A DNA stretch of 64,000 nucleotides, taken from the NCBI GenBank assembly GCA_028356795.1, contig JAOMVH010000003.1, positions 1-64,000 of the forward strand, given 5' to 3'. This document shows positions 2,431 through 27,471 of this stretch, one piece after another. Origin of the DNA: Aliiglaciecola sp. (GTDB taxonomy: Bacteria; Pseudomonadota; Gammaproteobacteria; Enterobacterales; Alteromonadaceae). The stretch's first letter is position 1. Every line of letters begins with the position of its first letter. Made by a program: the position numbers and the translations under genes. The notes beneath the pieces are model-generated. The model was given only the letters and a program-made list of their open reading frames with translations, was not told the origin of the DNA and ran no database searches.

Positions 2431-3429
2431 ATGTTTAAAGATAAATCGATTTTAATTACTGGTGGAACTGGCTCTTTTGGTAAACATTTCGTTTCACACC
2501 TTCTCGATAATGACACACCTAAACGGTTGATAATTTATTCTCGAGATGAGCTTAAGCAGTTCGAAATGCAGCAGCAATTTGATGCACCTTGTATGCGTTA
2601 TTTCATTGGCGATGTGAGAGACAAACATCGGCTAACATCGGCAATGAAGGATGTGGATTACGTTATTCATGCTGCGGCCCTTAAACAAGTCCCTGCTGCT
2701 GAATACAACCCAAACGAATGTATCAAAACCAACATCAATGGTGCGCAGAACGTAATTGATGCAGCCATTGAGACAGACGTGAGAAGAGTCATTGCGTTGT
2801 CTACTGACAAAGCAGCTAACCCAGTTAATTTATACGGAGCAACCAAACTTGCTTCGGATAAGTTGTTTGTTGCGGCCAATAATATATCCGGCGCCAAGGG
2901 CCCAAGATTTGCGGTTGTACGCTATGGCAATGTTGTCGGGTCTCGAGGCTCCGTTGTACCGTTTTATCGTGAACTGCTGGCTCAAGGTAAAACGACGTTG
3001 CCAGTGACTCACAAAGAGATGACGCGTTTCTGGATTACCCTAGATGAAGGTGTGCAGTTTGTTATTAAAAACTTCCAACGGATGCAGGGAGGAGAGATAT
3101 TTGTACCCAAAATTCCTTCGATCACTATTATTGATTTAGTTGAATCAATGAGTGGTAAAAGAGATTACGAGATCATTGGTATTCGTCCTGGAGAAAAGCT
3201 CCATGAAGTGATGGTGCCTCAAGAGATGGCCCATCATTCCCTTGAGTTTGACGATCACTACGTGATTACCCCAGCAATTAAATTTTTTGATAAAACCGTA
3301 AATTACAAGGTTAACAAGCTAGGCGAAAAAGGTCAGTCGGTAGAAGAGAAATTTGAGTACCATTCGGGAACAAATCCCCACTTTCTCAGTATTGACGAAT
3401 TACGAGATTTAGACAAAGCAACACTGTAG
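2431..3429 (+). CDS. pseB: UDP-GlcNAc 4,6-dehydratase (5-inverting) PseB
   Basis: MFKDKSILITGGTGSFGKHFV, SDR/FlaA1 family; first gene of a pse operon. Confidence 0.95.
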   Translation: MFKDKSILITGGTGSFGKHFVSHLLDNDTPKRLIIYSRDELKQFEMQQQFDAPCMRYFIGDVRDKHRLTSAMKDVDYVIHAAALKQVPAAEYNPNECIKTNINGAQNVIDAAIETDVRRVIALSTDKAANPVNLYGATKLASDKLFVAANNISGAKGPRFAVVRYGNVVGSRGSVVPFYRELLAQGKTTLPVTHKEMTRFWITLDEGVQFVIKNFQRMQGGEIFVPKIPSITIIDLVESMSGKRDYEIIGIRPGEKLHEVMVPQEMAHHSLEFDDHYVITPAIKFFDKTVNYKVNKLGEKGQSVEEKFEYHSGTNPHFLSIDELRDLDKATL

Positions 3430-3438
3430 GACGGCAAC

Positions 3439-4602
3439 ATGCCAGATCCCAAGAAGTTTATTCCTTATGGTCGTCACTTTATCGATAGTGACGACATCGA
3501 TGCGGTTGTAGATGTATTGGAAAATCATTTTCTTACCCAAGGCGCAAAAGTCCCCGAATTTGAGCGCGCCCTTTGTGATTACACAAATGCCCGTTTTGCA
3601 ACGGCAGTGAATAGCGCGACATCCGGACTTCATGTCGCATGTTTAGCCTTAGGTGTCACCAAAGGAGATTTGGTCTGGACAGTGCCAAATTCCTTTGTTG
3701 CCTCGGCCAATTGTGCTGTTTATTGTGGAGCGGAAATCGATTTCGTCGATATCGACGCTTCGACTCGAAATATCAGTATTTCACAATTGGAAGAAAAGCT
3801 GGCTAAAGCCAAAACGAAAGGTAGGTTGCCAAAAGTACTGATCCCCGTGCATTTTTCGGGCGCCAGTTGTGACATGCAAAAAATACAACACCTCGCCAAT
3901 GAATATGGCTTTAGGGTGATAGAAGACGCCGCACATGGACTAGGTGGTAGCTATCTTAAAAGCAAAATTGGAAGCTGCGAACATAGTGACATTACGGTGT
4001 TAAGCTTCCATCCAGTGAAGTCTATGACAACGGCAGAAGGTGGCGCAGTATTGACTAACTGCCCAGCCCTAAATAAACAGATTTTATTGTATGCTAAACA
4101 CGGTGTAACCCGTGACCCCGATCTTATGCAATCTGAGGCAGATGGACCTTGGTACTATCAACAAGTGACGCTAGGCTACAATTATAGATTGAGTGATCTA
4201 CATTCAGCATTAGGAATTTCCCAACTCAAAAAGCTCGATGGTTTTGTCGTTAAAAGACGGGAGCTCGTTGCCCGATACAACACGGAACTTAAACATTTAC
4301 CCCTATCTTTACCCTTGTCCGAAGAATTGCACTGTAGTGCATGGCATCTCTATATGGTGGAACTACAGGAACATGATAGAAAAGCTGTCTATGAGAAATT
4401 GCATGCCAAGGGTATTGGCGTGAACGTGCACTATATTCCAATTCATTTGCAGCCGTTTTATCAAAATATGGGCTTTCGAAAAGGCGATTTCCCTAATTCT
4501 GAAAAGTTTTATCACAATGCGCTAACTTTGCCTTTATTTCCGAGCATGACGGCCGATGATCAACATAGAGTGATACAAGCATTAAATGAGGTTCTCGCTT
4601 GA
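3439..4602 (+). CDS. pseC: UDP-4-amino-4,6-dideoxy-N-acetyl-beta-L-altrosamine transaminase PseC
   Basis: DegT/DnrJ/EryC1 aminotransferase fold (EDAAHGLGGSY, SFHPVKSMTTAEGG); follows pseB. Confidence 0.95.
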   Translation: MPDPKKFIPYGRHFIDSDDIDAVVDVLENHFLTQGAKVPEFERALCDYTNARFATAVNSATSGLHVACLALGVTKGDLVWTVPNSFVASANCAVYCGAEIDFVDIDASTRNISISQLEEKLAKAKTKGRLPKVLIPVHFSGASCDMQKIQHLANEYGFRVIEDAAHGLGGSYLKSKIGSCEHSDITVLSFHPVKSMTTAEGGAVLTNCPALNKQILLYAKHGVTRDPDLMQSEADGPWYYQQVTLGYNYRLSDLHSALGISQLKKLDGFVVKRRELVARYNTELKHLPLSLPLSEELHCSAWHLYMVELQEHDRKAVYEKLHAKGIGVNVHYIPIHLQPFYQNMGFRKGDFPNSEKFYHNALTLPLFPSMTADDQHRVIQALNEVLA

Positions 4603-5300
4603 ATTTAGCCATTATCCCCGCTAGAGGCGGAAGTAAACGAATCCCCGCGAAAAATATCAAAGAATTTGCTGGGAAACCCTTGATAGCTTATTCCATTCAG
4701 GCAGCAGAAAATTCTGGATTATTCGACAAAGTTTGGGTGTCGACTGACTCGGACGACGTTGCCGATATCGCTAAGATGTATGGGGCAGACGTGCCATTTA
4801 TGCGCTCAAAAGAATTATCCAATGATGTAATTGGCACTAGGCCTGTTACTACCCATGCAATACAGCATTGTATTGAACATTATCAAAAGCCCGATTACTG
4901 TTGCTGTATATACGCTACAGCCCCATTCCTGCAGGCGGAATATCTAAGAAAAGGCTTTGACTCATTAACGAGTGATGATAAAAAGTCTTTTTCATTTGCT
5001 GTAACAAGTTTTGCCTTTCCGATACAACGTTCTATTAGTATCAAGCAAGGTAACGTTGCTCCTATGTTTCCCCAAGATATTTTTAAGCGATCTCAGGACC
5101 TTGAAGAGGCTTATCACGATGCCGGACAGTTTTATTGGGGAAAGACTGACGACTATTTAACGTCTAAGAAAATTTTCTCTGAGCACAGTGTGCCCATTGT
5201 TTTACCCCGTCATTTGGTTCAAGACATTGATACACCTGAAGATTGGCATCGTGCAGAGCTGATGTATCAGGCGTACGTTAGAGGCATGGAGAATGACTAA
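4599..5300 (+). CDS. pseF: Pseudaminic acid cytidylyltransferase PseF
   Basis: NLAIIPARGGSKRIPAKNIKEFAGKPLIAYSI, CMP-NulO synthetase motif; TTG start overlapping pseC. Confidence 0.93.
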   Translation: MNLAIIPARGGSKRIPAKNIKEFAGKPLIAYSIQAAENSGLFDKVWVSTDSDDVADIAKMYGADVPFMRSKELSNDVIGTRPVTTHAIQHCIEHYQKPDYCCCIYATAPFLQAEYLRKGFDSLTSDDKKSFSFAVTSFAFPIQRSISIKQGNVAPMFPQDIFKRSQDLEEAYHDAGQFYWGKTDDYLTSKKIFSEHSVPIVLPRHLVQDIDTPEDWHRAELMYQAYVRGMEND

Positions 5301-6246
5301 AATTTTAGTTATTCGAATGCTTGAAATGGGGGATGTTGCAAGCATTGCACTGCCAGCAATTCGATATATTAAACAGGCTAATCCAAATGCCCAGTTGTTT
5401 TGTTTAACTCACGGGCAAGGCCATGAGTTAATATCGTTGTTGGAGCCTGATATTCAATTATTAGGCTTGGAAAACGGTAACTGGCCAGATAATATTTTCC
5501 ATGGCTTAGAAGCCTTTTTGGGGGTGGCAGAATCAATTGTTGAAATAAAGTTTGATCAAATTATCAATTTAGATACTGCATTTATGCCATGTTTTTTATC
5601 TCGCTTTTTAAAAGATGCGGGCGAGCCTGTACAAGGCAATTATATCGGTTTGTCGCTCCAAGAGTTGATTGATCAAATCCAAAATCAAACATTGCAACCG
5701 GCCTATGTAAATGATGTTCAACAGTATATGCAAAGTTCCTTTTTTAGCATGTTTAAATGGCATACCCAATGGTGGCAGTCAGACGTATTATGTGACCACG
5801 GCTATCCGGAATTCTATTTAAAAAATTGCTGTGGTTTCAGCGATATAAACTATGATGCCGTGCTATTACCAGCATCGGTAGAATTTCAAAAAAAATCGAC
5901 AAAAAAGATTTATTTAGGACTTAATGACCTTCAAATGCCCTATTTACAAACACAAACTTTGGTCCAAGAATTGGAACAACGAGGGTTTATCGTGGAGGTG
6001 GATAAAGAGAATGCACCTATTTCTTCGCGACTTGAAAGATTAAGTGCTAGTGACCTCGCAGTTTCACTTGCTAATGTTGTATATGCTTTGGCCAATACTG
6101 TTGGAACTCCTACCTTATTGGTTCCTATACAATTGGACCCCAGAATTCTAATGCCTGATTATGCCTTAGATATGGCAAGCGAGCTGCCTCAACCCGAAGA
6201 TTTAGCTGATAGTATCGCGTCAATCTTTGAGGAGTCAGCACAATGA
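5293..6246 (+). CDS. GT9/heptosyltransferase-like glycosyltransferase
   Basis: N-term ILVIRMLEMGDVASIALPAIRYIKQANPNAQLFCLTHGQG resembles GT9; C-term ...LANTVGTPTLLVP. Confidence 0.6.
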   Translation: MTKILVIRMLEMGDVASIALPAIRYIKQANPNAQLFCLTHGQGHELISLLEPDIQLLGLENGNWPDNIFHGLEAFLGVAESIVEIKFDQIINLDTAFMPCFLSRFLKDAGEPVQGNYIGLSLQELIDQIQNQTLQPAYVNDVQQYMQSSFFSMFKWHTQWWQSDVLCDHGYPEFYLKNCCGFSDINYDAVLLPASVEFQKKSTKKIYLGLNDLQMPYLQTQTLVQELEQRGFIVEVDKENAPISSRLERLSASDLAVSLANVVYALANTVGTPTLLVPIQLDPRILMPDYALDMASELPQPEDLADSIASIFEESAQ

Positions 6247-7295
6247 AAGATATAAAAATAGGTCGACATACTATTGGCTCTGAGCATGCGCCATTTATCA
6301 TTGCCGAGTTAAGTGGTAACCATAGTCAGAACTTTGAATTGGCCAAATCCATGGTTGATGCAGCAGCGCAAGCCGGGGCTGATGCAATCAAACTGCAAAC
6401 CTATACGGCAGATAGTATGACTCTAAACGTCAATACGTCAGATTTTATAATCCAAGAAGAAGATAGCTTGTGGCATGGTGAAGCGCTGCATGGCCTGTAT
6501 GCGAAGGCCGCAACGCCTTATGAGTGGCATAAGCTTTTGTTTGAATATGCCAATTCTTTAGGAATGTTGGCCTTTAGCAGCCCATTTGACGAAGATGCGG
6601 TAGACTTTTTAGAAACCTTGCATGTCCCTTGTTATAAAATTGCCTCCTTTGAGCTGACAGATCTTCCATTGATTAACAAAGCTGCCAGTACTGGCAAACC
6701 TATGATCATGTCGACGGGTATGGCAACGTTGAGTGAGATAGAAGAAGCAGTGAATACTGCTAAAGCGGCAGGTTGTGAAGAAATTGTGCTGCTTAAATGC
6801 ACCAGTACTTACCCTGCGAGTCCAGAAAACACCAATTTGGCGACCATACCGCATTTGCAGCGCGCATTTTCGACCCAAGTAGGGTTATCGGATCATACGC
6901 GGGGGATTGGTGTCTCCGTCGCTGCTGTTGCAATGGGAGCAAGTGTGATTGAAAAGCATTTTGTATTGGACAGAAATGCAGGTGGCGTAGATGCAGAGTT
7001 TTCCCTCGAGCCCCATGAACTAGCGTTACTCATTGAAGAAACACAACGCGCGCGAAAAAGTATTGGTAATGTTTGTTACGGTGGCACTGTTGCTGAAGAA
7101 AAGTCCAAGCACTATCGCCGGTCAATTTTTGTCAGCAGCGATATTAAACAAGGGGAAACCTTGGGCAAAGACAATTTAAAAATTGTACGTCCAGCGACGG
7201 GACTCAAACCCAAGCATTGGGGATCTGTCCAGCAAAAACATGCAAAACAAGATATACCGGCGGGAACACCCTTGTCATGGGAATTGTTTGAATAA
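6243..7295 (+). CDS. pseI: Pseudaminic acid synthase PseI
   Basis: NeuB family with C-terminal SAF domain; IAELSGNHSQNFELAKSMVDAAAQAGADAIKLQTYTADSMT. Confidence 0.95.
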   Translation: MKDIKIGRHTIGSEHAPFIIAELSGNHSQNFELAKSMVDAAAQAGADAIKLQTYTADSMTLNVNTSDFIIQEEDSLWHGEALHGLYAKAATPYEWHKLLFEYANSLGMLAFSSPFDEDAVDFLETLHVPCYKIASFELTDLPLINKAASTGKPMIMSTGMATLSEIEEAVNTAKAAGCEEIVLLKCTSTYPASPENTNLATIPHLQRAFSTQVGLSDHTRGIGVSVAAVAMGASVIEKHFVLDRNAGGVDAEFSLEPHELALLIEETQRARKSIGNVCYGGTVAEEKSKHYRRSIFVSSDIKQGETLGKDNLKIVRPATGLKPKHWGSVQQKHAKQDIPAGTPLSWELFE

Positions 7296-7342
7296 CACTT
7301 GGAAAATTGGCCAGGTCGCCAAAGTCCAAGAGGAACACCTTA

Positions 7343-8389
7343 ATGTCGACAATTTTATTCAGAGTAAATGCCGGTTCAGAATATGGTTTAGGCCACTTAA
7401 TGCGCTGCTTAGCATTGGCTCAATCACTCAAAAAACAAAACGTAAACAGTGTGTTTTTAGTCAATCATGAAGCGCGAGCTATCTGTCAGCAGCGCCAAGA
7501 TTGGACGGGAGAAATTGTGACACTGGATCCCCATGTTGTGGAATGCGAAGATGTGTCTTGTATCCAAGGTTTAATTCAACAATTTAGTCTTTCAGCCATC
7601 GTGATTGACGGCTACACCTTTTCATCTTCTTATCGTAAACAACTTCAAAATTTGGGCTGCTTTGTCATTTGCTTTGATGACACCAATGAGTTTGGCGATT
7701 TACACGCAGACCTGATTGTGAATGGCGCAAACGCAGCGCTGACATTGGAGTATGAAACAACTAACCCACAATCCATATTGTGTTTGGGTGATGAATACAC
7801 AGTGATGCGAGAGGAATTTATTGCAAACCAGCAAAGGCACTTTCCCTATCGTGAGTCTCTGCTTGTTATGTTAGGGGGAAGTGACCCTTTGGCATTAACA
7901 TTACCTATTATCAAAGAATTGCAGCACCAACGCTTCCAACACGCTATTGATATCGTCACAGGGGCGGCTAATCCAAACGCCAAAGAGATATCTAACTGTT
8001 TGCAATCAAGTCAACTCAATGCCCGGCACCTACATGATTGTCAAAATATGGCCCAAATAATGGCGAGATCCCGGTTCGCAATTTCAGCAGCAGGTGGCAG
8101 CCAATTTGAATTGCAAGCTTGTGGTTGTCCAAGTCTTTTGCTAGTGGTGGCTAATAATCAATGCAATGCTACCCGTGATGCCGTGCAACAAGGTTGGTGT
8201 CAATGCTTGGATTGTCAGGGTGCTGATTCAGAACTATCCAAGCAGGCATTCGCAAAAGCGATTGTTAAACAAACATTGGCGATATGGGAGGATCCGGATT
8301 TGCTTATGAGTATGCACTGCAAAGCAAACGAAACTAAACACATTGGTGGCGCGCAAAAGCTGGCGCATGCCATTAAGCAGAAGGTCTAA
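7343..8389 (+). CDS. pseG: UDP-2,4-diacetamido-2,4,6-trideoxy-beta-L-altropyranose hydrolase PseG
   Basis: RVNAGSEYGLGHLMRCLALAQSL motif; start moved to ATG at 7343. Confidence 0.92.
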   Translation: MSTILFRVNAGSEYGLGHLMRCLALAQSLKKQNVNSVFLVNHEARAICQQRQDWTGEIVTLDPHVVECEDVSCIQGLIQQFSLSAIVIDGYTFSSSYRKQLQNLGCFVICFDDTNEFGDLHADLIVNGANAALTLEYETTNPQSILCLGDEYTVMREEFIANQQRHFPYRESLLVMLGGSDPLALTLPIIKELQHQRFQHAIDIVTGAANPNAKEISNCLQSSQLNARHLHDCQNMAQIMARSRFAISAAGGSQFELQACGCPSLLLVVANNQCNATRDAVQQGWCQCLDCQGADSELSKQAFAKAIVKQTLAIWEDPDLLMSMHCKANETKHIGGAQKLAHAIKQKV

Positions 8390-8390
8390 G

Positions 8391-8954
8391 ATGAAGCCTA
8401 ATGTTGAAACATTGACGGGGTATCAAGTGACGTTGCGGCCAGTTGAGCTGCCTGACTTGGATATGCTAAGGCAATGGAGGAACTCACCACAAGTGAGTCA
8501 ATATATGTTGTCTCATGCGATGATTACCCAAGAGCAACAATTAGCGTGGTTTAAAAAGGTTGAACGTGATAATAGCCAGCAGCATTTTATGATCAGTTAC
8601 AAAGATACGCTGATTGGGTCGCTCAACATTAAGTCTAGACTTGTAGGTGAGAGCTTGGCGCAAGCTTCGGTAATTGAACCTGGCCTATATATTGCCGATA
8701 ACCGTTATCGCAACAATATTATTGCCTTTTCCCCAACTCTTTTAATTAATGATTATTGTTTTGACCAACTAAACTGTGACAAATTAGTCGCTGTTGTGAA
8801 GCCTGATAACCACGCTGCATTGAACTACAATGAAAAACTTGGTTATAAAGTCGTCAAACAGGGTGAATTAATTGAAATTGAACTGAATTTCGATGATTAT
8901 CAAGACCATAGCAAAACATTAAAAGCATTGTTGTCCCGTAACGCCAGTCGTTAA
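8391..8954 (+). CDS. pseH: PseH-like GNAT N-acetyltransferase
   Basis: VTLRPVELPDLDMLRQWRNSPQVSQYM GNAT signature; follows pseG; start moved to ATG 8391. Confidence 0.85.
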   Translation: MKPNVETLTGYQVTLRPVELPDLDMLRQWRNSPQVSQYMLSHAMITQEQQLAWFKKVERDNSQQHFMISYKDTLIGSLNIKSRLVGESLAQASVIEPGLYIADNRYRNNIIAFSPTLLINDYCFDQLNCDKLVAVVKPDNHAALNYNEKLGYKVVKQGELIEIELNFDDYQDHSKTLKALLSRNASR

Positions 8955-9000: not shown

Positions 9001-9246
9001 ATGACCAATCAGCATAAATTAGTGCAGGCTTTCTCCACCAGTTTAGGGGTAGAGCCAGCAATGGTGACCGATGACCTCACTTACGACACCATCCCACAAT
9101 GGGATTCAACCGCACATATGATATTGATTGCAGAACTAGAAGATGAATTTAAAGTGATGCTTGATACGGACGATATTATTGATATGAGCTCTGTTGCAAA
9201 AGCAAAGCAAATATTGACCAAATATGACGTAGACTTTGATGCTTAA
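9001..9246 (+). CDS. Acyl carrier protein
   Basis: 81 aa; QWDSTAHMILIAELEDEFKVMLD with phosphopantetheine-type DS site. Confidence 0.88.
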   Translation: MTNQHKLVQAFSTSLGVEPAMVTDDLTYDTIPQWDSTAHMILIAELEDEFKVMLDTDDIIDMSSVAKAKQILTKYDVDFDA

Positions 9247-9964
9247 CGATAAACACATATTGATCACTGGCGCGTCCAGTGGGATCGGTTTTGAAACCGC
9301 AATACAGTGCGCCAATCAAGGCGCATTTGTGTATTTGGCTGGACGAAATCAAGACCGTTTAGCGGCACTTCAAAAGCGGATTAAAAATGCTCTACTATTG
9401 CCTTACGACGTGTGTGATGAACAACAGGTTAAACAGGCATTTGTACAGATTAAACAAACCGGCAAACCTTTTCACGGCTTAGTGAATTGCGCAGGCGTAA
9501 TGTTGGACGCAGGGTTTGCAATGACTCGCATCAGCGACTTGCAGCAACAACTCAATGTCAATACCGTTTCAGCTTACTTGCATAGTCAGCTCGCTTCGCG
9601 ATTAATGACGCGAAAAAGAGAAGGAAGTATTGTCAATCTTTGTTCTATTGTTGGGGAGCAGGGGAGCGCAGGGCAAACCGCCTATGCCACGAGTAAATCA
9701 GCATTATCTGGCTTGACTCGCTCGCTGTCTAAAGAACTAGGAAAATTGAATGTCAGAGTAAATGGCGTAGCGCCTGGGTTCATTGATACACCAATGACCA
9801 ATGGCTATGAAGATGCTGCGAAGCAAAACATCATAGATAAAACCGCACTGAGTAGAATGGGCACACCGTCGGATGTTGCTCAATTGATTTGTTTTTTACT
9901 ATCCAAGCAATCGAATTTCATCACCGGTCAGATTATTGGTGTGGATGGTGGTTTGAGCCTTTAA
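9239..9964 (+). CDS. SDR family, FabG-like (3-oxoacyl-ACP reductase-like)
   Basis: ILITGASSGIGFETA, YATSKSALSGLTRSLSKELG, VDGGLSL. Confidence 0.88.
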   Translation: MLNDKHILITGASSGIGFETAIQCANQGAFVYLAGRNQDRLAALQKRIKNALLLPYDVCDEQQVKQAFVQIKQTGKPFHGLVNCAGVMLDAGFAMTRISDLQQQLNVNTVSAYLHSQLASRLMTRKREGSIVNLCSIVGEQGSAGQTAYATSKSALSGLTRSLSKELGKLNVRVNGVAPGFIDTPMTNGYEDAAKQNIIDKTALSRMGTPSDVAQLICFLLSKQSNFITGQIIGVDGGLSL

Positions 9965-9967
9965 ATC

Positions 9968-11380
9968 ATGTTTTTTAATGCGTTATCTCAGTTTTCAAAC
10001 AACGTTGCCGCGATAGAAGGCAATGAAAGACTCTCCTATACACAGTTAAATGATGCTCAAGGGGAATTGGCGACATCAATCGACAAATTAATTGGGAAAC
10101 CAAGCCAAGTCATACTAATTGAAGCTTACAATGGTATTTCAACGTTAATCGCTTACCTAGCCGTTCTAAATACAAATCATTGCGCCATTCTGGTTGAACC
10201 TTCTCCCCCTTCGGGTTCACTGAACAAAATCATTAAAGCGTTTGCCGTTAGTCTGGTGATTCAGTGTCGTGCCGATAAGCATCTCAATATTGAGGTTGTC
10301 AGCCATGATCAACAGCCCTTGGCAAGCAACAAAACCGCGGTATTGCTGACAACCTCTGGTTCTACTGGCACCGCCAAACATGTGGCATTGAGTCGTGATA
10401 ATTTGCAAGCTAATGCCGATTCCATTTGTGAATATTTGCCCATCCAATCGTTAGATAAAACCCTTTGTTCGCTGCCATTTTTTTATTCCTACGGCTTGTC
10501 TGTGATAAATACCCACTTAAATGCAGGCGCCTGTTGTGTCTTTACCAGTGCAAACCCAATATCCAAGGGGTATTGGCAGCTTATTAGTGAACACAAGGTC
10601 AATAGTATTGCAGGTGTGCCCTTTATCTACGAGATGTTACTTCGACTAAAGCTAACCGAAAAAGAGCTACCACACTTGCGATATTTGACGCAAGCGGGGG
10701 GAAAATTGTCGCCAGAAAAAATCAAAGCCTTGGGGCAATATGCAAAAGACAAGGGTAAACAGTTTTTTGTGATGTACGGGCAAACCGAGGCTACGGCTAG
10801 AATGGCATTTTTAGCGCCGCAAAAGGTGCTAGACAAACCAGAATCAATTGGCAACGCTATTGCTCATGGTGAATTTAAACTTATCAATGATTTGGGCCAG
10901 CTTATCGTTGAGCCGAATATTCCAGGGGAGCTTTATTACCAAGGACCGAACGTGATGCTAGGGTACGCGGACAGTCGGGAGGCATTAGCAACACTAGACA
11001 GTGAAAATTTGACGGGGTCTTGGCTAGCAACCGGCGATATGGCAATTGTCGATAGCGATGGCGATTACACCATTACCGGTCGAAAATCGCGCTTTGTTAA
11101 ATTTTCGGGCCAACGAATTGATTTGGATAGCTTAGAAACCTTACTTTCCAACAAAAAACGTCAAGTGATTTGTACGGGAGATGATGCGCAGTTGATAGTT
11201 GGACTTGTAGATAACAAACTGACATCAAATGAAAGTGAGGTCGTCTCACAATTGCATCGTCAGATGGGCATTCATCCCTCTAAAGTCTGCATAGTGCTTA
11301 TCGACACCATCCCGATCAATAAAAACGAGAAGACTGATTATCCTGCTTTGCGGTTATTGGCCCAAGGATTAAGCCAATGA
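9968..11380 (+). CDS. AMP-dependent acyl-CoA/acyl-ACP ligase
   Basis: TTSGSTGTAKHVALSRDNL (P-loop), MYGQTEAT, ATGDMAIVDSDGDYTITGRKSRFVK. Confidence 0.9.
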   Translation: MFFNALSQFSNNVAAIEGNERLSYTQLNDAQGELATSIDKLIGKPSQVILIEAYNGISTLIAYLAVLNTNHCAILVEPSPPSGSLNKIIKAFAVSLVIQCRADKHLNIEVVSHDQQPLASNKTAVLLTTSGSTGTAKHVALSRDNLQANADSICEYLPIQSLDKTLCSLPFFYSYGLSVINTHLNAGACCVFTSANPISKGYWQLISEHKVNSIAGVPFIYEMLLRLKLTEKELPHLRYLTQAGGKLSPEKIKALGQYAKDKGKQFFVMYGQTEATARMAFLAPQKVLDKPESIGNAIAHGEFKLINDLGQLIVEPNIPGELYYQGPNVMLGYADSREALATLDSENLTGSWLATGDMAIVDSDGDYTITGRKSRFVKFSGQRIDLDSLETLLSNKKRQVICTGDDAQLIVGLVDNKLTSNESEVVSQLHRQMGIHPSKVCIVLIDTIPINKNEKTDYPALRLLAQGLSQ

Positions 11381-12483
11381 TCAGCTTAATGACTCGCCCT
11401 GACATGGAGAATTACCTAACCCAATTCGAATCTCTCTTGCAGCATGACGTTTATGGATTACTCCAAGAACAAAAAGAACAAATTCTGTGCAACATACTTG
11501 ACGCGCTGCACAAACATCATGAGCAGCACTGTGAAGCCTATGGCCGCATCGTCAATGATGAAAATGACTCATTCAATATGTTGAGTGATTTTCCATATTT
11601 GGCTGTGCGACTATTTAAACAGTTGGATTTAAGAAGCATAGACAAACAGGATGTGTATAGAGTGTTGCAGTCTTCTGGCACCACCAGTCAACAACCTGCA
11701 AGGGTCTATCTAGATAAAGTCACCAGTGCTCGTCAAAGCAAAGTACTAGTGAAAATTTTGCAAGATAGCATTGGTAAACAGCGGTTGCCGATGTTAATCA
11801 TTGATAGCCCAAGTGTGCTTAAAGATAAAGCCAAGTTCAGCGCACGAGGAGCGGGTATTCAAGGTCTTTCTTTTTTTGGGCGAGATCACACTTATGCGCT
11901 AGACGACAACATGCAGCCAAACTGGCCCGTGATTGACGCGTTTCACGACAAGTATGCGGGCCAACCGGTGTTGATGTTTGGTTTTACTTATATGGTGTGG
12001 CTATATTTTGTGCAACAGCTATCGAGCTCACAGCGCACCTTACACTTTGATAAAGGCATACTGCTGCACTCTGGTGGGTGGAAAAAGCTCGAACAAGCGA
12101 AAGTCGACAATGATTCGTTCAAAGCGACCTTGTTAAAAACCACCGGTATCTCTAGGTGTTTTAATTTCTATGGCATGGCAGAGCAGGTTGGTTCGGTATT
12201 TGTGGAATGTGCACATGGTCATTTACATGCCCCTGTTTTTGCTGATGTGATCGTGCGCGACCCGTTTACCCTAGCATGCAGCCCAAATGGCGAGTTGGGT
12301 TTACTACAAGTGCTTTCTGCCGTGCCAAGCAGCTACCCAGGACACAGCATACTAACAGAAGATCTCGGCACCTTGTTAGGGGTCGATGATTGTCCTTGTG
12401 GGCGCAAAGGCAAGTACTTTTCAGTGCAAGGACGTTTGCCCAAAACCGAGGTGAGGGGATGCAGTGATACACATAAAGGGTGA
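11377..12483 (+). CDS. LuxE-like acyl-protein synthetase
   Basis: LQSSGTTSQQPARVYLDKVTSARQ, LLHSGGWKK, FNFYGMAEQVGSVFVEC; LuxE family pattern. Confidence 0.85.
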   Translation: MISLMTRPDMENYLTQFESLLQHDVYGLLQEQKEQILCNILDALHKHHEQHCEAYGRIVNDENDSFNMLSDFPYLAVRLFKQLDLRSIDKQDVYRVLQSSGTTSQQPARVYLDKVTSARQSKVLVKILQDSIGKQRLPMLIIDSPSVLKDKAKFSARGAGIQGLSFFGRDHTYALDDNMQPNWPVIDAFHDKYAGQPVLMFGFTYMVWLYFVQQLSSSQRTLHFDKGILLHSGGWKKLEQAKVDNDSFKATLLKTTGISRCFNFYGMAEQVGSVFVECAHGHLHAPVFADVIVRDPFTLACSPNGELGLLQVLSAVPSSYPGHSILTEDLGTLLGVDDCPCGRKGKYFSVQGRLPKTEVRGCSDTHKG

Positions 12484-12507
12484 ACGAATGAAATCAAAAG
12501 GGCAGTC

Positions 12508-13734
12508 ATGCAAGCGTTAACCATATTAGCGCCAACAGGCGTGGATGAACGTTCACATGAAGAGACTGCACAATTGCAGCAAGTGCAGGTTGCCATTGAT
12601 GCCACACCGCTGAGTGTCGATCACCCATTGTGTTTGGATTTTTTGCAAGATTTGTCGAAACGCCTGTTAAGTGCAGCAAATGCAAAAAAACACCCTGAAC
12701 TTGTGGCATTAGGCTTCTGGTTGCGCAGAAATAATCTTAATGCATTATTTTTGCTATATGATACAAGCAGTGAAACCAATACGCCTATTCGCAAACCACT
12801 TGGGCTTGTGGTGCATTTTACACCTAGCAATGTGGATACCATGTTCATTTATAGCTGGGTTTGTGCCTTGCTATGCGGCAACAACAATATTATCCGTGTC
12901 GCAACGGCTAAAACGGATTTGCAAGACACCTTGCTGGCAACCATTGACGAACTTCTCAACACATCAACTTATTATGACATTGCTATTCGCAATTGTTTTG
13001 TCAGCTATGCAAAAGATTCTCAAGTCAGTGCCATGTTGTCGCGGGTTGCGGATGCTCGTGTAATTTGGGGAGGTGACGAAAGTGTCACTGCCATTCGGTC
13101 ACTTGATTGCAAGCCGCGCTGCAGAGACATTTGTTTTGCCGATCGCTATTCGGCAACACTCATCGCCCTAAACGCTGATCATTCTTCTACGCAGGTTGAT
13201 GATTTGGCGCGTAAAATCCGAAAAGACACAGAGCCATATCATCAACAGGCGTGTTCATCACCAAGAGTTATGTATTTTATTGGCAGTAGCACGCTGCTGA
13301 TTGATTTGCTTGAAAGGTTGGATCACATTGCTCATGGCTCCGATGATTCGATAACACGGGCTAACAATCAATTGGTAAATTCTCAATTGGTCAAAAGTGT
13401 TGATTCTGAGGCGAAGGTGTTTGCATTTGACAATATCACAGCCGCGGTGGTGAAGGGCGTATCTGAACAAATGATGGATTGGCATGGTGGTGAAAACGTG
13501 TTTTATATTCGTCATATTGAGCATGTTGATGCCATCTATAATGATGCTGTGACGAAGTTGCAAACCCTCAGCTATTTTGGCGTTGACAAAGAAGCACTAT
13601 TAAAGCTTTCAAGTGATTCGTCGATATCAGGAATAGATAGAATTGTACCTGTTGGACAGGCATTAGATTTTTCACCCGATTGGGATGGGTATCAGTTGCG
13701 AGAACAATTAACTCGCAGCGTGGTGCTTCGTTAA
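12508..13734 (+). CDS. LuxC-like acyl-CoA/acyl-protein reductase
   Basis: GLVVHFTPSNVDTMFIYSWVCALLCGNNNIIR and catalytic-Cys segment QQACSSPRVMYFIG, LuxC family pattern. Confidence 0.87.
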   Translation: MQALTILAPTGVDERSHEETAQLQQVQVAIDATPLSVDHPLCLDFLQDLSKRLLSAANAKKHPELVALGFWLRRNNLNALFLLYDTSSETNTPIRKPLGLVVHFTPSNVDTMFIYSWVCALLCGNNNIIRVATAKTDLQDTLLATIDELLNTSTYYDIAIRNCFVSYAKDSQVSAMLSRVADARVIWGGDESVTAIRSLDCKPRCRDICFADRYSATLIALNADHSSTQVDDLARKIRKDTEPYHQQACSSPRVMYFIGSSTLLIDLLERLDHIAHGSDDSITRANNQLVNSQLVKSVDSEAKVFAFDNITAAVVKGVSEQMMDWHGGENVFYIRHIEHVDAIYNDAVTKLQTLSYFGVDKEALLKLSSDSSISGIDRIVPVGQALDFSPDWDGYQLREQLTRSVVLR

Positions 13735-13785: not shown

Positions 13786-15087
13786 ATGACAAAAGTAGTT
13801 TACGTGGGGATGAGTGCCGACCTTGTTCATCCCGGCCACCTGAATATAATTAAAGAAGCGGCAAAATTAGGACAAGTGACGGTGGGTCTATTAACTGATC
13901 AGGCGATAGCCAGTTATAAACGCGTGCCCTTTATGGAGTTCGAGCAACGTAAGCAAGTCATCGAAAATATCAAAGGTGTGCATACGGTTGTTACGCAGTC
14001 TACGCTCGACTATGTACCGAATTTAGAATCGATCAAACCTGATTATGTGGTACACGGTGACGATTGGAAAACTGGTGTTCAAAGTAAGACTCGTCAACGG
14101 GTGATTGATTGTTTGAAGCCGTGGGACGGTGAATTAGTTGAAGTTTCATATACACAGGGAATTTCTTCTACTCAGTTGCACAATGCCATGAAAGAAATCG
14201 GCACGACACCGCAAGTGCGTTTGAAATCACTCAAGCGCTTGTTAAATGCCAAGCCCCTTGTGCGATTTTTAGATATTCACAATGCCTTGTCTGGCTTGAT
14301 TATTGAAAACACCAAAATCACTACCGAACAGGGCGAGCAAGAGTTTGACGGCATGTGGGGGAGTAGCTTGACTGACTCTACGGCAAAGGGAAAGCCAGAT
14401 ATCGAAGCAGTTGATGTGTCATCGCGCATGAGCACCCTTAACGAAGTCCTCGAGGTAACATCCAAACCAATTATTTATGATGGTGATACCGGTGGAAAGA
14501 CTGAGCATTTCGTATTTACGGTCAAAACGTTGGAGCGACTTGGTGTATCCGCGGTTATTATTGAGGATAAAACCGGCCTCAAGAAAAACTCGTTATTTGG
14601 CACCGAAGTCGCGCAAACACAAGATAGCATCGAAAACTTTAGTCAGAAAATTCAAGCGGGGAAAAATGCTCAGGCAACTGATGATTTTATGATTTTTGCG
14701 CGAATCGAGAGCTTAATTTTAGGACAAAGTGTTGAACATGCACTGGAAAGAGCGCAAGCGTTTTTAGATGCCGGTGCTGATGGGATCATGATCCATAGCC
14801 GTAATAAAAGCCCCGATGAAATATTCAGTTTCTGTGATAAGTACAATCAGATCCCGAATCGGAAAACCTTGGTAGTTGTGCCCTCGAGCTTCAATAAAGT
14901 GTATGAGCAAGAGCTGCAAGCCAGAGGCGTGAATATTGTTATTTACGCCAATCAACTTTTGCGCAGCGCGTATCCTGCCATGGTGAATACCGCTCAATCA
15001 ATCTTGCAACATGGCCGCTCCGCTGAAGTGGACGAAAACATGATGCCGATTAAGCAGATTTTAGAATTGATACCAGGTGGAAAGTAG
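13786..15087 (+). CDS. Fused cytidylyltransferase (N-term) - phosphoenolpyruvate mutase (C-term)
   Basis: N-term HxGH nucleotidyltransferase ([10 protein letters not shown]); C-term PEP mutase signature [10 protein letters not shown] = EDKXXXXXNS (14563-14592). Confidence 0.93.
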
Positions 15088-16220
15088 TGATAGAGCCAAA
15101 GCAATTTTGTGACATCTTGCTGAAAAACAACGTCGATTTTTTCTGCGGTGTTCCCGATTCATTGCTTAAAGAACTGTGTGCCTATATTGATGATCAGTTC
15201 TCATCACAGCAACACATTATTACTGCCAATGAAGGAAATGCGGTAGGCTTGGCGATGGGACGATTTTTAGGCAGCAACTCGCCCGCCGTTGTGTATATGC
15301 AAAACTCAGGTTTGGGTAACGCAGTGAATCCCTTGACCTCCCTTGCTGATCCTAAAGTATACAGCGTTCCTATGTTATTAGTGGTTGGTTGGCGAGGTGA
15401 GCCTGGCGTGAAAGATGAACCGCAGCACGTCATGCAAGGACAAATCACCGAACAGCAATTAGCGATACTCGATATTCCGTATGTGGTGTTGCATGCGCAG
15501 TCTGATAACCAAGGTGCCCTTGAGCCATTGTTACAACAAATGCGCTCACAAAGTCGACCGGTAGCCGTGTTGGTGAAAAAAGGCACCTTCAGTAGCTTTA
15601 AATCAGACAAAAAAGTAAGTGTGGTTAAGTATGCCATGAAGCGCGAAGAAGCGTTAAATGTACTGCTGAGCGAATTTGACGGTGACGATATTGTGGTATC
15701 CACAACGGGCAAAACTTCTCGAGAGGTATTTGAATTACGCAAAGCTAGAGGGGAGGCTGCTTCGGACTTTTTAACCGTTGGCGGCATGGGACACACCTTG
15801 TCTATCGCTATGGGGGTTGCATTGGCTCAACAAGATCGTAAAGTCATCGCCATTGATGGTGATGGCTCTATGTTGATGCACATGGGCGCGCTTCCCATTG
15901 CTGGGAGTCATGCAACAAACAACCTAGTTCATATCGTCTTGAATAACCAATGCCATGAGTCGGTAGGTGGTCAACCTACCGTAGCGGGTAACATTGACTT
16001 GCAGCGGATTGCCATCGCATCCGGTTACAAACAATACTTTAGCGCCAGTGAGCAAGATACTATTGCCAAAACATGGAAGCAGATAGCACAAAGTAATGGA
16101 CCTGCACTATTCGAAATAAAAATAGCCAAAGGTGCCAGAAGCGACCTAGGCCGCCCAACGAGTAGTCCTGTAGAAAATAAGCGTGCTTTCATGGAGCATG
16201 TGGGAAGCTTAAATGATTGA
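15087..16220 (+). CDS. Phosphonopyruvate decarboxylase (ThDP-dependent)
   Basis: FFCGVPDSLLKELCAY, TANEGNAVGLAMGRFLG, GDGSMLMHMGALP; overlaps PEP mutase stop. Confidence 0.92.
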   Translation: MIEPKQFCDILLKNNVDFFCGVPDSLLKELCAYIDDQFSSQQHIITANEGNAVGLAMGRFLGSNSPAVVYMQNSGLGNAVNPLTSLADPKVYSVPMLLVVGWRGEPGVKDEPQHVMQGQITEQQLAILDIPYVVLHAQSDNQGALEPLLQQMRSQSRPVAVLVKKGTFSSFKSDKKVSVVKYAMKREEALNVLLSEFDGDDIVVSTTGKTSREVFELRKARGEAASDFLTVGGMGHTLSIAMGVALAQQDRKVIAIDGDGSMLMHMGALPIAGSHATNNLVHIVLNNQCHESVGGQPTVAGNIDLQRIAIASGYKQYFSASEQDTIAKTWKQIAQSNGPALFEIKIAKGARSDLGRPTSSPVENKRAFMEHVGSLND

Positions 16221-17286
16221 GAGGCTGGCAGATTATCCTGACGTCAACATCGTCGAATGTGATGATGTGATGTCTGTATTACCGCGATTAGTTTGTAGCG
16301 GCAATATATTGCTGGTCACCAGTAAAGGATTTGTTAAAAGAGGCACAGTTTCACGCCTTCTGGAGTCGCTAGGGACTGACCGCGTTATGGTGTTTGATGA
16401 AGTAACGCCAAACCCTGAAAAAAGCCACCTTCAACGTGCAAGTGGTGACTTTGCTGGTAAAGGTATTCAACAAGTTATTGCCCTAGGTGGCGGCAGTGTC
16501 ATCGATGCCGCAAAAGTATTTTGTGGCTTACTCAGCTATCCCAACTATTCACTGGACGAATTATTATCAACCGATGTGGTTGAGAATCGCATCAACCTAA
16601 TTGCCATTCCTACAACTTCAGGAACTGGCGCAGAGGTAACGCCCTTTGCCACCGTTTGGCAATCTGATATTGGCAAAAAGTATTCGCTTTATGGAGTGCG
16701 ACCCAATATCGCGGTGCTAGATTCAAGTTTGACTAACTCTTTACCGGAAAAACAGACACTTTATCCATCTCTTGATGCACTATCTCATGCCATAGAGTCA
16801 CTTTGGAACATTAATAGCACAGAGCAATCACGAGAATATGCGCTTTATGCCATTGACCTTATTTGTGACAATTTACCTTTGGTCTTAAACAATCCAAGTG
16901 ATTTTCTTGCGCGTAAAAATTTGCAAATAGCATCTAGCGCAGCAGGAATGGCAATTTCGATCACTAAAACTGCGATCGCACACGCTATTTCTTATCCTCT
17001 TACCATGCAGTTTAATGTCCCCCATGGATTGGCGTGTAGCTTCACCATAAATAGCATTATCAATATATTTGGAGCGGAGCAATTAAACTTAGACTCAGAG
17101 TTAGCATCCAAGGTGCAGGGACTACTAAGATCACTAAATTTGCCAAATGAAATCGAATCCTATGTTAGTTGGGACATTTTGCTAAGTGAATTAACTACGC
17201 CGCTAGATCCCAGCAGGGCTGGAAAATTTATTATAAATTTTGAAAAACTGAATGTTCAAGAGATCTTACTCGTTGCAAAAGCGTGA
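16213..17286 (+). CDS. Iron-containing alcohol dehydrogenase, probable phosphonoacetaldehyde reductase
   Basis: IALGGGSVIDAAKVF, IPTTSGTGAEVTPFATVW; 8-nt overlap with Ppd. Confidence 0.85.
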   Translation: MIERLADYPDVNIVECDDVMSVLPRLVCSGNILLVTSKGFVKRGTVSRLLESLGTDRVMVFDEVTPNPEKSHLQRASGDFAGKGIQQVIALGGGSVIDAAKVFCGLLSYPNYSLDELLSTDVVENRINLIAIPTTSGTGAEVTPFATVWQSDIGKKYSLYGVRPNIAVLDSSLTNSLPEKQTLYPSLDALSHAIESLWNINSTEQSREYALYAIDLICDNLPLVLNNPSDFLARKNLQIASSAAGMAISITKTAIAHAISYPLTMQFNVPHGLACSFTINSIINIFGAEQLNLDSELASKVQGLLRSLNLPNEIESYVSWDILLSELTTPLDPSRAGKFIINFEKLNVQEILLVAKA

Positions 17287-17303: not shown

Positions 17304-18236
17304 ATGAAAACTCAAACTTTGTTATTTGGTGCCGGACAAGGATCTCGAATTTATATGGAGAATAACCTCGAGACCCGCGAATTTATTGGTTTTTTGGATA
17401 ACGACAAATCCAAGCATGGCGAAATTTTTGAAGGGCTACCAATACATCATCCATCGTTTATCAATGAGTTAGAATTTGATGAGGTGGTAATTACCACACA
17501 ATGGGCATTGGAAGTTCAACATCAGTTATTAGATGAACTTCATATCTCTAAAGATAAAGTCATCTTGCCAGAGAAAAATCAATTAAAAAAAATAACGCCA
17601 TTTGAAAACCCCAAAACCAGAAATCTAGCCAGAGACATTGTCAAAACAATTTGCCGAAAGGCTATTGATGGAAATGTTCCAATTGTTGTTGATTTTGGCA
17701 CGCTGTTGGGTCTCATTAGAGACCAAGACATTATTGAGTGGGATGATGATGTTGATTTTGCAGCGCCAATCGACTCCCTTGAAAGTGTTGAACGGTTATT
17801 TACCGATTTTGTTTCTGAAGTAAATCTTGGAGTCGATTGGATACTGGAAAAAGTGACCGATAGTCAAAATGATATATCGGGTTTTCTGCTTAAATTTAGT
17901 GATCCCACAACAACAATGGTTGAGTTTACAAGCTCTATTAGTTTTAGAAAAAATGTAGCGGAAAAGTCGATTCATATGCCAAGTCTTGGCATGTGGTTTT
18001 CACCCCAAATTCATTTTAGTGGCGTTGACACCATTGAGTGGCAGGGAAATTTAATCGCTGTACCTATTAATTATGAGGCTTACTTAACCTTCCAATATGG
18101 TGATTGGAAAACACCCAAGAAAAATATTCAATTAAGTGATTATGCGAACATCCAGTCAGTTGACTTTGCTGATATTCAAAAAGCAAAATTCCAAGCAAAA
18201 CAAATTAATCAGACTAAAGAAGAAAAACGAAAGTGA
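17304..18236 (+). CDS. LicD-family phosphotransferase with N-terminal Rossmann-like (PglD-N-like) domain
   Basis: VDFGTLLGLIRDQDIIEWDDDVDFAAP is the LicD core; N-term LLFGAGQGSRIYMENN...IGFLDNDKSKHG. Confidence 0.85.
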   Translation: MKTQTLLFGAGQGSRIYMENNLETREFIGFLDNDKSKHGEIFEGLPIHHPSFINELEFDEVVITTQWALEVQHQLLDELHISKDKVILPEKNQLKKITPFENPKTRNLARDIVKTICRKAIDGNVPIVVDFGTLLGLIRDQDIIEWDDDVDFAAPIDSLESVERLFTDFVSEVNLGVDWILEKVTDSQNDISGFLLKFSDPTTTMVEFTSSISFRKNVAEKSIHMPSLGMWFSPQIHFSGVDTIEWQGNLIAVPINYEAYLTFQYGDWKTPKKNIQLSDYANIQSVDFADIQKAKFQAKQINQTKEEKRK

Positions 18237-19315: not shown

Positions 19316-20482
19316 ATGCGAAAGATAGCAGTATTCACGGGGTCGAGAGCGGATTATGGGATCCTCTATTGGCTTTTGACAGAACTGATAGACATCGAGG
19401 GTGTCGAACTTCAACTTTATGTTGGCGGTAGCCATTTGTCTGATGAGTTTGGGCACACAATAACTCAAATTATGAATGACAAGTTTAAGGTTACGGAGAC
19501 ATTTAGCTATTTGCCATACGATGATTCAGCTATCGGCGTAGCCAAGTCAGCTGCTCGTACATTGGTTTGTGCTACCCAAGCCATAGTTAAAAATAAACCT
19601 GATCTAATGGTGGTGGTTGGGGACAGATACGAGACTTTTTCTGTTGCTCAAGCAGCTATGATGTCTCGGTTGCCTATTGCTCATATCCATGGCGGAGAGT
19701 TGACGATAGGGGCAATAGATGACGCTATTAGGCATGCAATAACAAAAATGTCACAACTTCATTTTGCCGCAACAGAAAAATATAGGCAGCGAATTATTCA
19801 ATTGGGAGAGCAGCCTAAGAACGTGTTTAGTTTTGGTGCTCCTGGTTTGGACAATATAGACAAGCTGAGATTGTTATCACTATCCGAGCTGTCAGAAACC
19901 TTAACTTTTGATTTAACGTCGCGCTATTTTGTAGTGACATTTCACCCAGAAACACTTTCTCTAAATGGTGGTTCGCGGACTCTGCAAAATCTATTCGATG
20001 CTTTGGATAGTTTTACGAATTATAAGCTTCTTATAACCTACCCAAATGCAGATGCCTGCGGCCGAAAATTAGTTGCAATGTGCCAGCAATACCAAGAAGC
20101 GCGGCCTGATCGAGTACTGCTTGTCAAATCGCTTGGTCAGTTGCGATATTTAAGCGGTATCAAGCATTGCTCTGCAGTGATTGGTAATTCTTCAAGCGGC
20201 TTAATTGAAGCGCCAAGCTTTCATGTCCCAACGGTAAATATCGGTGAGCGACAGCTCGGAAGAGACTGTGGCGCGTCAGTTTTAACCTGCAGTGGCTCTC
20301 TAAAGGATATTGAAAAAACAATTAATCGTGCCTGCAGTCCAGCGTTTGTGGAAAAATGTCAAAATGCTGAAAATCCATATGGTTGTGGTGCCGTTGCAAA
20401 AAAAATCGTCAATGAAATAGTGTCTTTTCCGTTAGAAAACCTGCTTAAAAAGCAATTTCATGATCTTAATACCGGCTTTTAA
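19316..20482 (+). CDS. NeuC/LegG-type hydrolysing UDP/GDP-GlcNAc 2-epimerase (copy 1)
   Basis: KIAVFTGSRADYGILYWLL, HIHGGELTIGAIDDAIRHAITKMS, GNSSSGLIEAPSF. Confidence 0.9.
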   Translation: MRKIAVFTGSRADYGILYWLLTELIDIEGVELQLYVGGSHLSDEFGHTITQIMNDKFKVTETFSYLPYDDSAIGVAKSAARTLVCATQAIVKNKPDLMVVVGDRYETFSVAQAAMMSRLPIAHIHGGELTIGAIDDAIRHAITKMSQLHFAATEKYRQRIIQLGEQPKNVFSFGAPGLDNIDKLRLLSLSELSETLTFDLTSRYFVVTFHPETLSLNGGSRTLQNLFDALDSFTNYKLLITYPNADACGRKLVAMCQQYQEARPDRVLLVKSLGQLRYLSGIKHCSAVIGNSSSGLIEAPSFHVPTVNIGERQLGRDCGASVLTCSGSLKDIEKTINRACSPAFVEKCQNAENPYGCGAVAKKIVNEIVSFPLENLLKKQFHDLNTGF

Positions 20483-20504
20483 GGCTTAGGTCGAAGGATA
20501 TTGG

Positions 20505-20531
20505 TAATGAAACTCTTTGGGAAGCCGATAA
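20505..20531 (+). promoter_or_regulatory. Candidate FliA (sigma-28) promoter TAAT-N15-GCCGATAA
   Basis: TAATGAAACTCTTTGGGAAGCCGATAA; perfect -10 octamer, exact N15 spacing; in 253-bp intergenic gap. Confidence 0.55.
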
Positions 20532-20759
20532 AAACTAAAGCTCTGTTATGATTAAATTTTAATTACATTATTTATGTTAGACGGTTTGTTGTTGATTTAA
20601 TAAGAGTTTTTTGAGTGGTAGTTATGCTGTAAGCTAGCTAGTACTTTGTTGCTTAGGAATTGTGGGCGGAAAAAGTCGAGACTTGGACAAGTCTTATTTT
20701 CTCCAATTGCAAATATCCCAATATGCTGATCATAATTGATCTCAAGGATAATTATAAAC

Positions 20760-21773: not shown

Positions 21774-21798
21774 TAATAGTGATAAGGTGATATTCGAA

Positions 21799-24203: not shown

Positions 24204-24244
24204 ATTACAGAACAATGATCGAATCAATTGCAGTTAAAATGAAA

Positions 24245-24266: not shown

Positions 24267-24296
24267 CCAACTAAAGAACAGAGGACATGAAATAGC

Positions 24297-27460: not shown

Positions 27461-27471
27461 GGGTTTTTTTG

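What the first reader, a model, noticed from the sequence alone, without database searches (positions are those of the whole stretch)
9001..13734. Lux-like acyl activation and reduction module (ACP, SDR, acyl-AMP ligase, LuxE, LuxC) without luxAB or luxD
Five consecutive genes look like a carrier-protein-based system that activates a carboxylic acid and reduces it to an aldehyde, located between a pseudaminic acid operon and a phosphonate module. LuxE/LuxC families are known from bioluminescence, but no luciferase or LuxD thioesterase is present. I recall (unverified) that Shewanella flagellin glycosylation loci also carry lux-like and ACP genes. Inference: the module supplies an unusual acyl, hydroxyacyl or aldehyde-derived substituent for a nonulosonic acid or the phosphonate-bearing residue.
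Basis: partly seen in the sequence, partly recalled or inferred. Interest (0 to 1): 0.78.

Follow-up and report, generated by a model that had tools for sequence, protein, structure and literature searches.

The report
Lux-like cassette making a sugar acyl group
Five genes that look like part of a light-producing system are instead a widespread cassette, matching the cholera O1 surface-sugar genes, that probably turns a small diacid such as malate into a hydroxyacid and attaches it to the sugar decorating the flagellum, which would explain an unassigned sugar mass measured in Aeromonas.

Summary
The five genes (ACP, SDR, AMP ligase, LuxE, LuxC; 9001-13734) are real, intact and keep their catalytic residues. 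In 95 of 133 distinct neighbourhoods sampled they occur contiguously (a Maf gene is sometimes inserted); in 82 they follow pseH directly. No luciferase or LuxD goes with them. The arrangement is already published as unexplained genes of Aeromonas Group II and enterobacterial flagellin-glycosylation islands, guessed there to make a 'liposugar'. Vibrio loci with ACP + ligase + Fe-ADH + LuxE-LuxC fusion match the reported gene functions of the V. cholerae O1 tetronate cluster (rfbKLMN). Best explanation: LuxE/LuxC reduce one carboxyl of a diacid (probably malate), the SDR finishes the alcohol, the ligase loads the other carboxyl on the ACP, and the neighbouring PseH N-acylates the pseudaminic acid precursor. 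Support: the acyltransferase beside the cassette changes with the sugar; PseH beside the cassette lost the CoA-binding G-x-G loop (86/87, against 0/15 without it); Pse5Ac7(dihydroxybutyryl) is 376.148 Da, and the unassigned Aeromonas AH-3 sugar is 376.14 Da, whereas cassette-free A. caviae has plain Pse5Ac7Ac (316). Steps are inferred; the substrate is untested. The phosphonate genes are an independent unit.

The parts
2431..8389 (+). pseB (2431-3429), pseC (3439-4602), pseF (4599-5300), unknown 317 aa (5293-6246), pseI (6243-7295), pseG (7307-8389): pathway to the pseudaminic acid precursor
   Evidence: ORFs; synteny in relatives. pseG and the 317-aa protein have no Pfam match, so pseG is named by position
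8391..8954 (+). PseH-like GNAT, predicted acceptor enzyme that takes the acyl group from the cassette to the 4-amino group of the UDP-sugar (N-7 of Pse)
   Evidence: TIGR03585 71.5 bits, below the cut-off of 93.1; AlphaFold pLDDT 94.4, best PDB match H. pylori PseH 4ri1, E 3.9e-12
8703..8729 (+). RYRNNIIAF, residues 105-113 of PseH: replaces the G-x-G CoA-pyrophosphate loop of canonical PseH
   Evidence: G-x-G absent in 86/87 cassette-linked PseH, present in 15/15 cassette-free PseH
9001..9246 (+). Acyl carrier protein; phosphopantetheine Ser36 (codon 9106-9108) in signature IPQWDSTAHM
   Evidence: signature WDSx[AG]HM in 122/125 SDR/TPP-type and 3/3 Vibrio-type cassettes
9239..9964 (+). SDR, predicted semialdehyde-to-alcohol reductase (FabG-like)
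   Evidence: YATSK active site at residue 149
9968..11380 (+). AMP-forming ligase predicted to load the (hydroxy)acid on the ACP; TSGSTG loop at residue 129
   Evidence: 36-41% identical to cassette ligases of Aeromonas, Firmicutes and rhizobia
11377..12483 (+). LuxE-family acyl-protein synthetase; acyl-accepting Cys362 (codon 12460-12462) in RGCSD
   Evidence: PF04443 158.7 bits; PDB 7xc6_E E 1.2e-12 with the Cys aligned; [RKQ]GC[SG][DN] in 133/133
12508..13734 (+). LuxC-family acyl reductase (ALDH-like); catalytic Cys249 (codon 13252-13254) in QQACSS
   Evidence: PF05893 102.9 bits; PDB 7xc6_A with QQAC aligned; Q..CSS/CFS/CTS-type motif in 108 of 131, and CAS in all of the other 23 that were aligned
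13786..17286 (+). Neighbouring but independent phosphonate unit: cytidylyltransferase-PEP mutase, phosphonopyruvate decarboxylase, Fe-ADH (LicD follows at 17304-18236)
   Evidence: present in a minority of loci and also beside a lux-free cassette

Best explanation
The five genes are an acyl-ACP supply cassette with a built-in carboxyl-reduction step. LuxE adenylates one carboxyl of a small dicarboxylic acid (most likely malate) and passes it as a thioester to its own Cys362 and then to Cys249 of LuxC, which reduces it with NAD(P)H to the semialdehyde. The SDR reduces the semialdehyde to the alcohol. The AMP ligase activates the remaining carboxyl and loads it on the ACP; this may also happen first. 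The neighbouring PseH variant takes the hydroxyacyl group from the ACP and N-acylates UDP-4-amino-4,6-dideoxy-L-AltNAc in place of the usual acetylation. The flagellin sugar is then Pse5Ac with an N7-dihydroxybutyryl (3-deoxytetronoyl) group, residue mass 376.148 Da. Shown: gene content, catalytic residues, synteny, swapping of acyltransferase and aldehyde-consuming partner, change of the PseH CoA loop, mass agreement. Inferred: substrate (malate), product (2,4- rather than 3,4-dihydroxybutyrate), ACP as donor, and order of steps.
For: (1) Two carboxylate-activating enzymes (ligase + LuxE), one acyl reductase, one alcohol dehydrogenase and one ACP fit a diacid with one end reduced and the other activated; a mono-acid turned to an aldehyde would leave nothing for ligase and ACP (inference). 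(2) Vibrio loci L233, L273, L274 have ACP-ligase-Fe-ADH-LuxE/LuxC fusion of 825-827 aa, the same functions as reported for V. [quoted passage not shown] the product there is an N-(S)-2,4-dihydroxybutyryl group on an amino sugar (PMC6562859). (3) The acyltransferase beside the cassette matches the sugar: PseH-like GNAT in pse loci, NeuD/PglD (TIGR03570) in loci with a 4-amino-sugar transaminase such as L101, hexapeptide transferases elsewhere. (4) Cassette-linked PseH lacks G-x-G in 86/87, cassette-free PseH has it in 15/15; TIGR03585 scores are roughly 56-101 bits with the cassette against 104-205 for those over the cut-off without it. The fold is still PseH, and FdhC, a GNAT that moves 3-hydroxybutyryl to a sugar amine, is among the matches (5ktc). 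(5) A. piscicola AH-3, whose island has the cassette, carries an unassigned 376.14-Da Pse derivative that is the only modification in the fgi-1 mutant (PMC7874193); calculated 376.148. A. caviae Sch3 has plain Pse5Ac7Ac (PMC9290775).
Against: No enzyme of the cassette has been assayed and no lux-gene mutant is reported in the papers read. The cassette ligase is only 22-26% identical to the Vibrio-type (RfbL-like) ligase, no closer than the lux-free ligases are to that enzyme, and SDR replaces Fe-ADH, so an identical product is not guaranteed. 376.148 Da also fits O-methylglyceroyl. The assignment of PseH as donor-switched is weakened because lux-free loci with their own ACP/ligase/SDR keep the GSG loop, and the 15 lux-free PseH were drawn from those over the PseH cut-off. 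Some cassettes lack the SDR (for example L034, L041, L045). V. cholerae O1 itself was not identified among the genomes searched, and its pathway is itself a sequence-based proposal (Morona 1995, cited in PMC12208996).
Confidence: 0.6

Rival explanations
1. Fatty-acid/liposugar module: the genes channel a long-chain fatty acid to a fatty aldehyde or acyl chain that is added to the flagellin glycan (reading of the Aeromonas and Enterobacteriaceae papers).
For: Family names LuxE/LuxC/ACP/FabG; proposed in PMC7874193 and PMC4875605.
Against: The AH-3 fgi-1 mutant, in which only the glycosyltransferase was deleted, carries a single 376.14-Da sugar with no lipid mass (PMC7874193). Bioluminescence LuxE/LuxC models score far below cut-off; no LuxD; cassette LuxE/LuxC lie closer to the Vibrio RfbN-type than to luminescence proteins.
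Confidence: 0.07
2. Same cassette logic but another small acid: succinate to 4-hydroxybutyrate, or a 3,4-dihydroxy isomer, with the product used on Pse N-7.
For: Same enzyme chemistry; the substrate cannot be read from sequence; ligase diverges from the RfbL-like enzyme.
Against: 4-Hydroxybutyryl-Pse would be 360.153 Da and succinyl-Pse 374.133 Da, not 376.14; the 3,4-isomer cannot be excluded.
Confidence: 0.18
3. The hydroxyacyl group goes to another sugar of the glycan, for example the terminal 102-Da moiety of the AH-3 heptasaccharide or the phosphonate-bearing residue, not to Pse.
For: 102 Da equals C4H6O3; a phosphonate unit is adjacent in the window.
Against: pseH is directly upstream in 82 of 133 loci, the phosphonate unit is near in 6 and also beside a lux-free cassette; 376 Da persists when the outer glycan is lost (PMC7874193).
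Confidence: 0.1
4. The aldehyde itself is the product, ligated or attached directly, and the ACP/ligase serve a separate acyl.
For: In a minority of loci the SDR is replaced by an acetolactate-synthase-like TPP enzyme with a FabA-like dehydratase, or by a split transketolase, enzymes that could use aldehydes.
Against: The window and 102 of 133 loci have the SDR; no such ligating enzyme belongs to the window cassette.
Confidence: 0.05

Closest known systems
Vibrio cholerae O1 tetronate genes (rfbK/L/M/N = VC0248-VC0251)
   Same: Carrier protein, AMP ligase, alcohol dehydrogenase, LuxE + LuxC; acyl goes to an amino sugar of a surface glycan. ACP signature WDSxAHM shared with Vibrio-type loci of the same layout.
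   Different: Fe-ADH instead of SDR, LuxE and LuxC fused, distant ligase (22-26%), acceptor is perosamine of LPS rather than flagellin Pse.
Aeromonas Group II flagella glycosylation islands (orf1-3, luxE, luxC; 98 strains, PMC7874193) and enterobacterial islands (PMC4875605)
   Same: Same five genes directly downstream of pseH; seen here in named Aeromonas loci L091-L108.
   Different: There pseFGI lie on the opposite strand; function was guessed as fatty acid/liposugar and not tested.
Bioluminescence fatty-acid reductase luxCE (PDB 7xc6)
   Same: LuxE and LuxC families, both catalytic cysteines aligned.
   Different: No luxAB, no luxD, extra ACP/ligase/SDR, separate branch of the LuxE and LuxC trees.
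PseH (TIGR03585; H. pylori 4ri1, C. jejuni 4xpk)
   Same: Position in pse operon, GNAT fold, best PDB match.
   Different: Scores below the equivalog cut-off; CoA-binding G-x-G loop replaced.

Membership tests
V. cholerae O1 rfbKLMN-type tetronate pathway | ACP + AMP ligase + LuxE + LuxC together | tested here: met
V. cholerae O1 rfbKLMN-type tetronate pathway | Iron-containing alcohol dehydrogenase within the cassette, LuxE-LuxC fused | tested here: not met
   Window has SDR and separate LuxE, LuxC; its Fe-ADH belongs to the phosphonate unit. Hence 'works like', not 'is'
V. cholerae O1 rfbKLMN-type tetronate pathway | Product (S)-2,4-dihydroxybutyrate, N-linked to an amino sugar | not testable with these tools
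   Only mass agreement in Aeromonas AH-3
Aeromonas Group II flagella glycosylation island cassette | ACP, 3-oxoacyl-ACP-reductase-like SDR, AMP synthetase, luxE, luxC directly downstream of pseH | tested here: met
   PMC7874193
Aeromonas Group II flagella glycosylation island cassette | fgi-1 GT-2 glycosyltransferase after luxC | tested here: not met
   Window has PEP mutase there
Bioluminescence lux operon | luxAB luciferase and luxD thioesterase | tested here: not met
   Absent from window; LuxA none in own assembly (59.6% complete) and weak in congeners, LuxD partial, 23 bits at best
Bioluminescence lux operon | LuxE/LuxC equivalog scores | tested here: not met
   61/550 and 41/750 bits
PseH equivalog TIGR03585 | Score over 93.1 bits | tested here: not met
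   71.5 bits
PseH equivalog TIGR03585 | GNAT fold of PseH | tested here: met
   AlphaFold + Foldseek, 4ri1 rank 1
PseH equivalog TIGR03585 | Acetyl-CoA pyrophosphate loop G-x-G/A | tested here: not met

The most novel reading that the evidence does not exclude
The cassette is a widespread natural route from malate to 2,4-dihydroxybutyryl-ACP (a 2017 study states that no natural pathway to this acid had been described, PMC5481828). It feeds a donor-switched PseH that uses acyl-ACP, so that Pse5Ac7(2,4-dihydroxybutyryl) is the flagellin sugar of many Gammaproteobacteria. Its aldehyde-consuming enzyme (SDR, Fe-ADH, TPP enzyme, transketolase) and acyltransferase are swapped as interchangeable parts to make different sugar acyl groups across phyla.
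Probability: 0.4. Interest if true: 0.75.

Novelty: new variant of a known kind. Interest (0 to 1): 0.62.

Why it matters
It gives a concrete, testable chemistry to a cassette that has been catalogued in about 170 published strains and guessed to be lipid-related, explains an unassigned 376-Da flagellin sugar, links flagellar glycosylation to the cholera O1 antigen pathway, and offers natural enzymes for 2,4-dihydroxybutyrate, a compound for which synthetic routes have been engineered because no natural route was described (PMC5481828). A PseH that takes its acyl from a carrier protein would be a new donor specificity.

Tried and rejected
Shewanella oneidensis as precedent: rejected, no lux genes in sfmABCDE. 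Phosphonate link: rejected. 'Loss of G-x-G equals ACP donor' as a general rule: rejected, since lux-free ACP cassettes keep GSG; kept only as a correlation with the lux cassette. A first regular-expression count of the loop was faulty (22 false positives, many from the YIGEA turn) and was redone by aligned position; the one linked sequence that still passed (L168, RGSAYAF) has Ala at the second position. V. cholerae O1 itself was sought in the Vibrio genus and not recognised; Vibrio loci with the same gene functions were used instead. The 102-Da AH-3 moiety as direct proof of dihydroxybutyrate: noted, not claimed. A. hydrophila AH-1 has 403 Da, which neither helps nor hurts; one of its figure legends says 376 Da. 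My tallies come from loci ranked by likeness to the window, not from a random sample.
Full report
Observation. Genes overlap or nearly touch. Catalytic residues are intact: ACP Ser36, SDR YxxxK, ligase TSGSTG loop, LuxE Cys362 (RGCSD) and LuxC Cys249 (QQACSS); the two cysteines align with the solved LuxC/LuxE complex 7xc6. Bioluminescence-specific models score far below their cut-offs. No luciferase or LuxD accompanies them (the window's assembly is only 59.6% complete, but congeners are complete). Two relatives in the window's genus have contig lengths equal to those of Aliiglaciecola lipolytica E3 and Aliiglaciecola sp. M165, so the window is an Alteromonadaceae genome of that genus.

How widespread. 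LuxC relatives occur in 69 of 299 genomes of the family and LuxE relatives in 55 of 395 of the order, a few of them luminescence-type. A pattern scan of named genomes gave 559 confirmed relatives, in Alpha-, Beta-, Gammaproteobacteria, Desulfobacterota, Bacillota and others. I read 133 distinct neighbourhoods. In 95 the cassette is contiguous (ACP and SDR in either order, ligase, LuxE, LuxC, a Maf gene sometimes inserted); in 82 pseH is directly upstream. This is a functional unit. Ligase-LuxE fusions (L058, L063) and LuxE-LuxC fusions (L153 and Vibrio) point the same way.

Already reported. The same five genes follow pseH in 98 Aeromonas strains (Group II islands, PMC7874193), and similar sets occur in about 72 Enterobacteriaceae (PMC4875605) and in Dickeya (PMC7575072). 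The first two papers suggest a liposugar. No paper in the open library held mentions both 'dihydroxybut-' and pseudaminic acid.

Link to the cholera O1 antigen. Three Vibrio loci (L233, L273, L274) and L234 have ACP, a ligase of 472-479 aa, Fe-ADH of 374-375 aa and a LuxE-LuxC fusion of 825-827 aa in this order. This is the function order reported for V. [quoted passage not shown]), the cluster assigned to tetronate, that is (S)-2,4-dihydroxybutyrate N-linked to perosamine (PMC6562859). The ACP signature WDSx[AG]HM is shared by both types (122/125 and 3/3), and in LuxE and LuxC trees the two types lie closer to each other than to luminescence proteins. The ligases are distant, so same logic is better supported than same substrate.

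Mechanism. Two acid-activating enzymes, one acyl reductase, one alcohol dehydrogenase and an ACP make sense for a diacid: one end is reduced, the other is activated. Malate gives 2,4-dihydroxybutyrate when its C4 end is reduced. An engineered route of the same logic, malate to semialdehyde to dihydroxybutyrate, exists, and its authors state that no natural pathway had been described (PMC5481828).

Acceptor. The acyltransferase beside the cassette changes with the sugar: PseH-like GNAT in pse loci, NeuD/PglD-family in L100, L101, L142 and others, hexapeptide transferases elsewhere. The window's PseH folds like H. pylori PseH but is under the PseH cut-off. Cassette-linked PseH lacks the G-x-G loop that holds CoA pyrophosphate in 86 of 87; all 15 cassette-free PseH tested have it. 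A weak FeeM match (to my knowledge an acyl-ACP-using GNAT family; 20.3 bits, below the cut-off of 27) fits but proves nothing. A control limits the inference: cassette-free loci carry a different ACP-ligase-SDR set in the same slot, and one class of their PseH keeps GSG. So the loop change goes with the lux cassette, not with any ACP.

Mass. Pse5Ac7Ac is 316.127 Da; replacing one acetyl by dihydroxybutyryl gives 376.148. A. piscicola AH-3 carries an unassigned Pse derivative of 376.14 Da, the only modification left when fgi-1 is deleted. A. caviae Sch3 has plain Pse5Ac7Ac. 4-Hydroxybutyryl (360.153), succinyl (374.133) and malyl (390.127) do not fit; O-methylglyceroyl is isobaric. This also argues against a long-chain lipid.

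Variants. Some cassettes lack the SDR. A minority replace it with an acetolactate-synthase-like TPP enzyme and FabA-like dehydratase, or a split transketolase, which suggests the aldehyde can be ligated instead of reduced. The phosphonate genes are near in 6 of 133 loci and follow a lux-free cassette in L294, so they are independent.

Verdict. Observation confirmed. Hydroxyacyl-ACP supply for sugar N-acylation: about 0.75 likely. Dihydroxybutyryl on Pse N-7 from malate: about 0.45-0.5. The combined statement as written: 0.6.

Noticed in passing
L288, L294, L295, L296; L280, L291, L292, L293, L298: Lux-free relatives carry a different ACP + AMP ligase + SDR set in the same slot beside pseH, in two arrangements with different PseH loops (GSG or RNLGG). 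This looks like an alternative acyl-supply cassette for Pse (an ACP was read in all but L291).
   Followed up: partly
L093, L119, L120, L128, L275, L276, L277, L071, L138, L249, L137: LuxE/LuxC core paired with an acetolactate-synthase-like TPP enzyme and FabA-like dehydratase, or with a split transketolase, in place of or beside the SDR.
   Followed up: partly
window 19316-31850: A second nonulosonic acid set: two NeuC-like epimerases, NeuB-like synthase (24297-25337), ptmE-like CBS-nucleotidyltransferase, and a CMP-NulO synthetase fused to an SDR (21787-23307).
   Followed up: no
window 5293-6246: 317-aa protein between pseF and pseI, conserved in many Alteromonadaceae loci, with no Pfam match.
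   Followed up: no
window 33232-34155: Sulfotransferase-domain protein (46 bits) in the flagellin glycosylation island.
   Followed up: no
G276 contigs C24 and C90 (L019, L287): One genome holds both PseH types: cassette-linked (77 bits) and canonical with the GSG loop (134 bits).
   Followed up: partly
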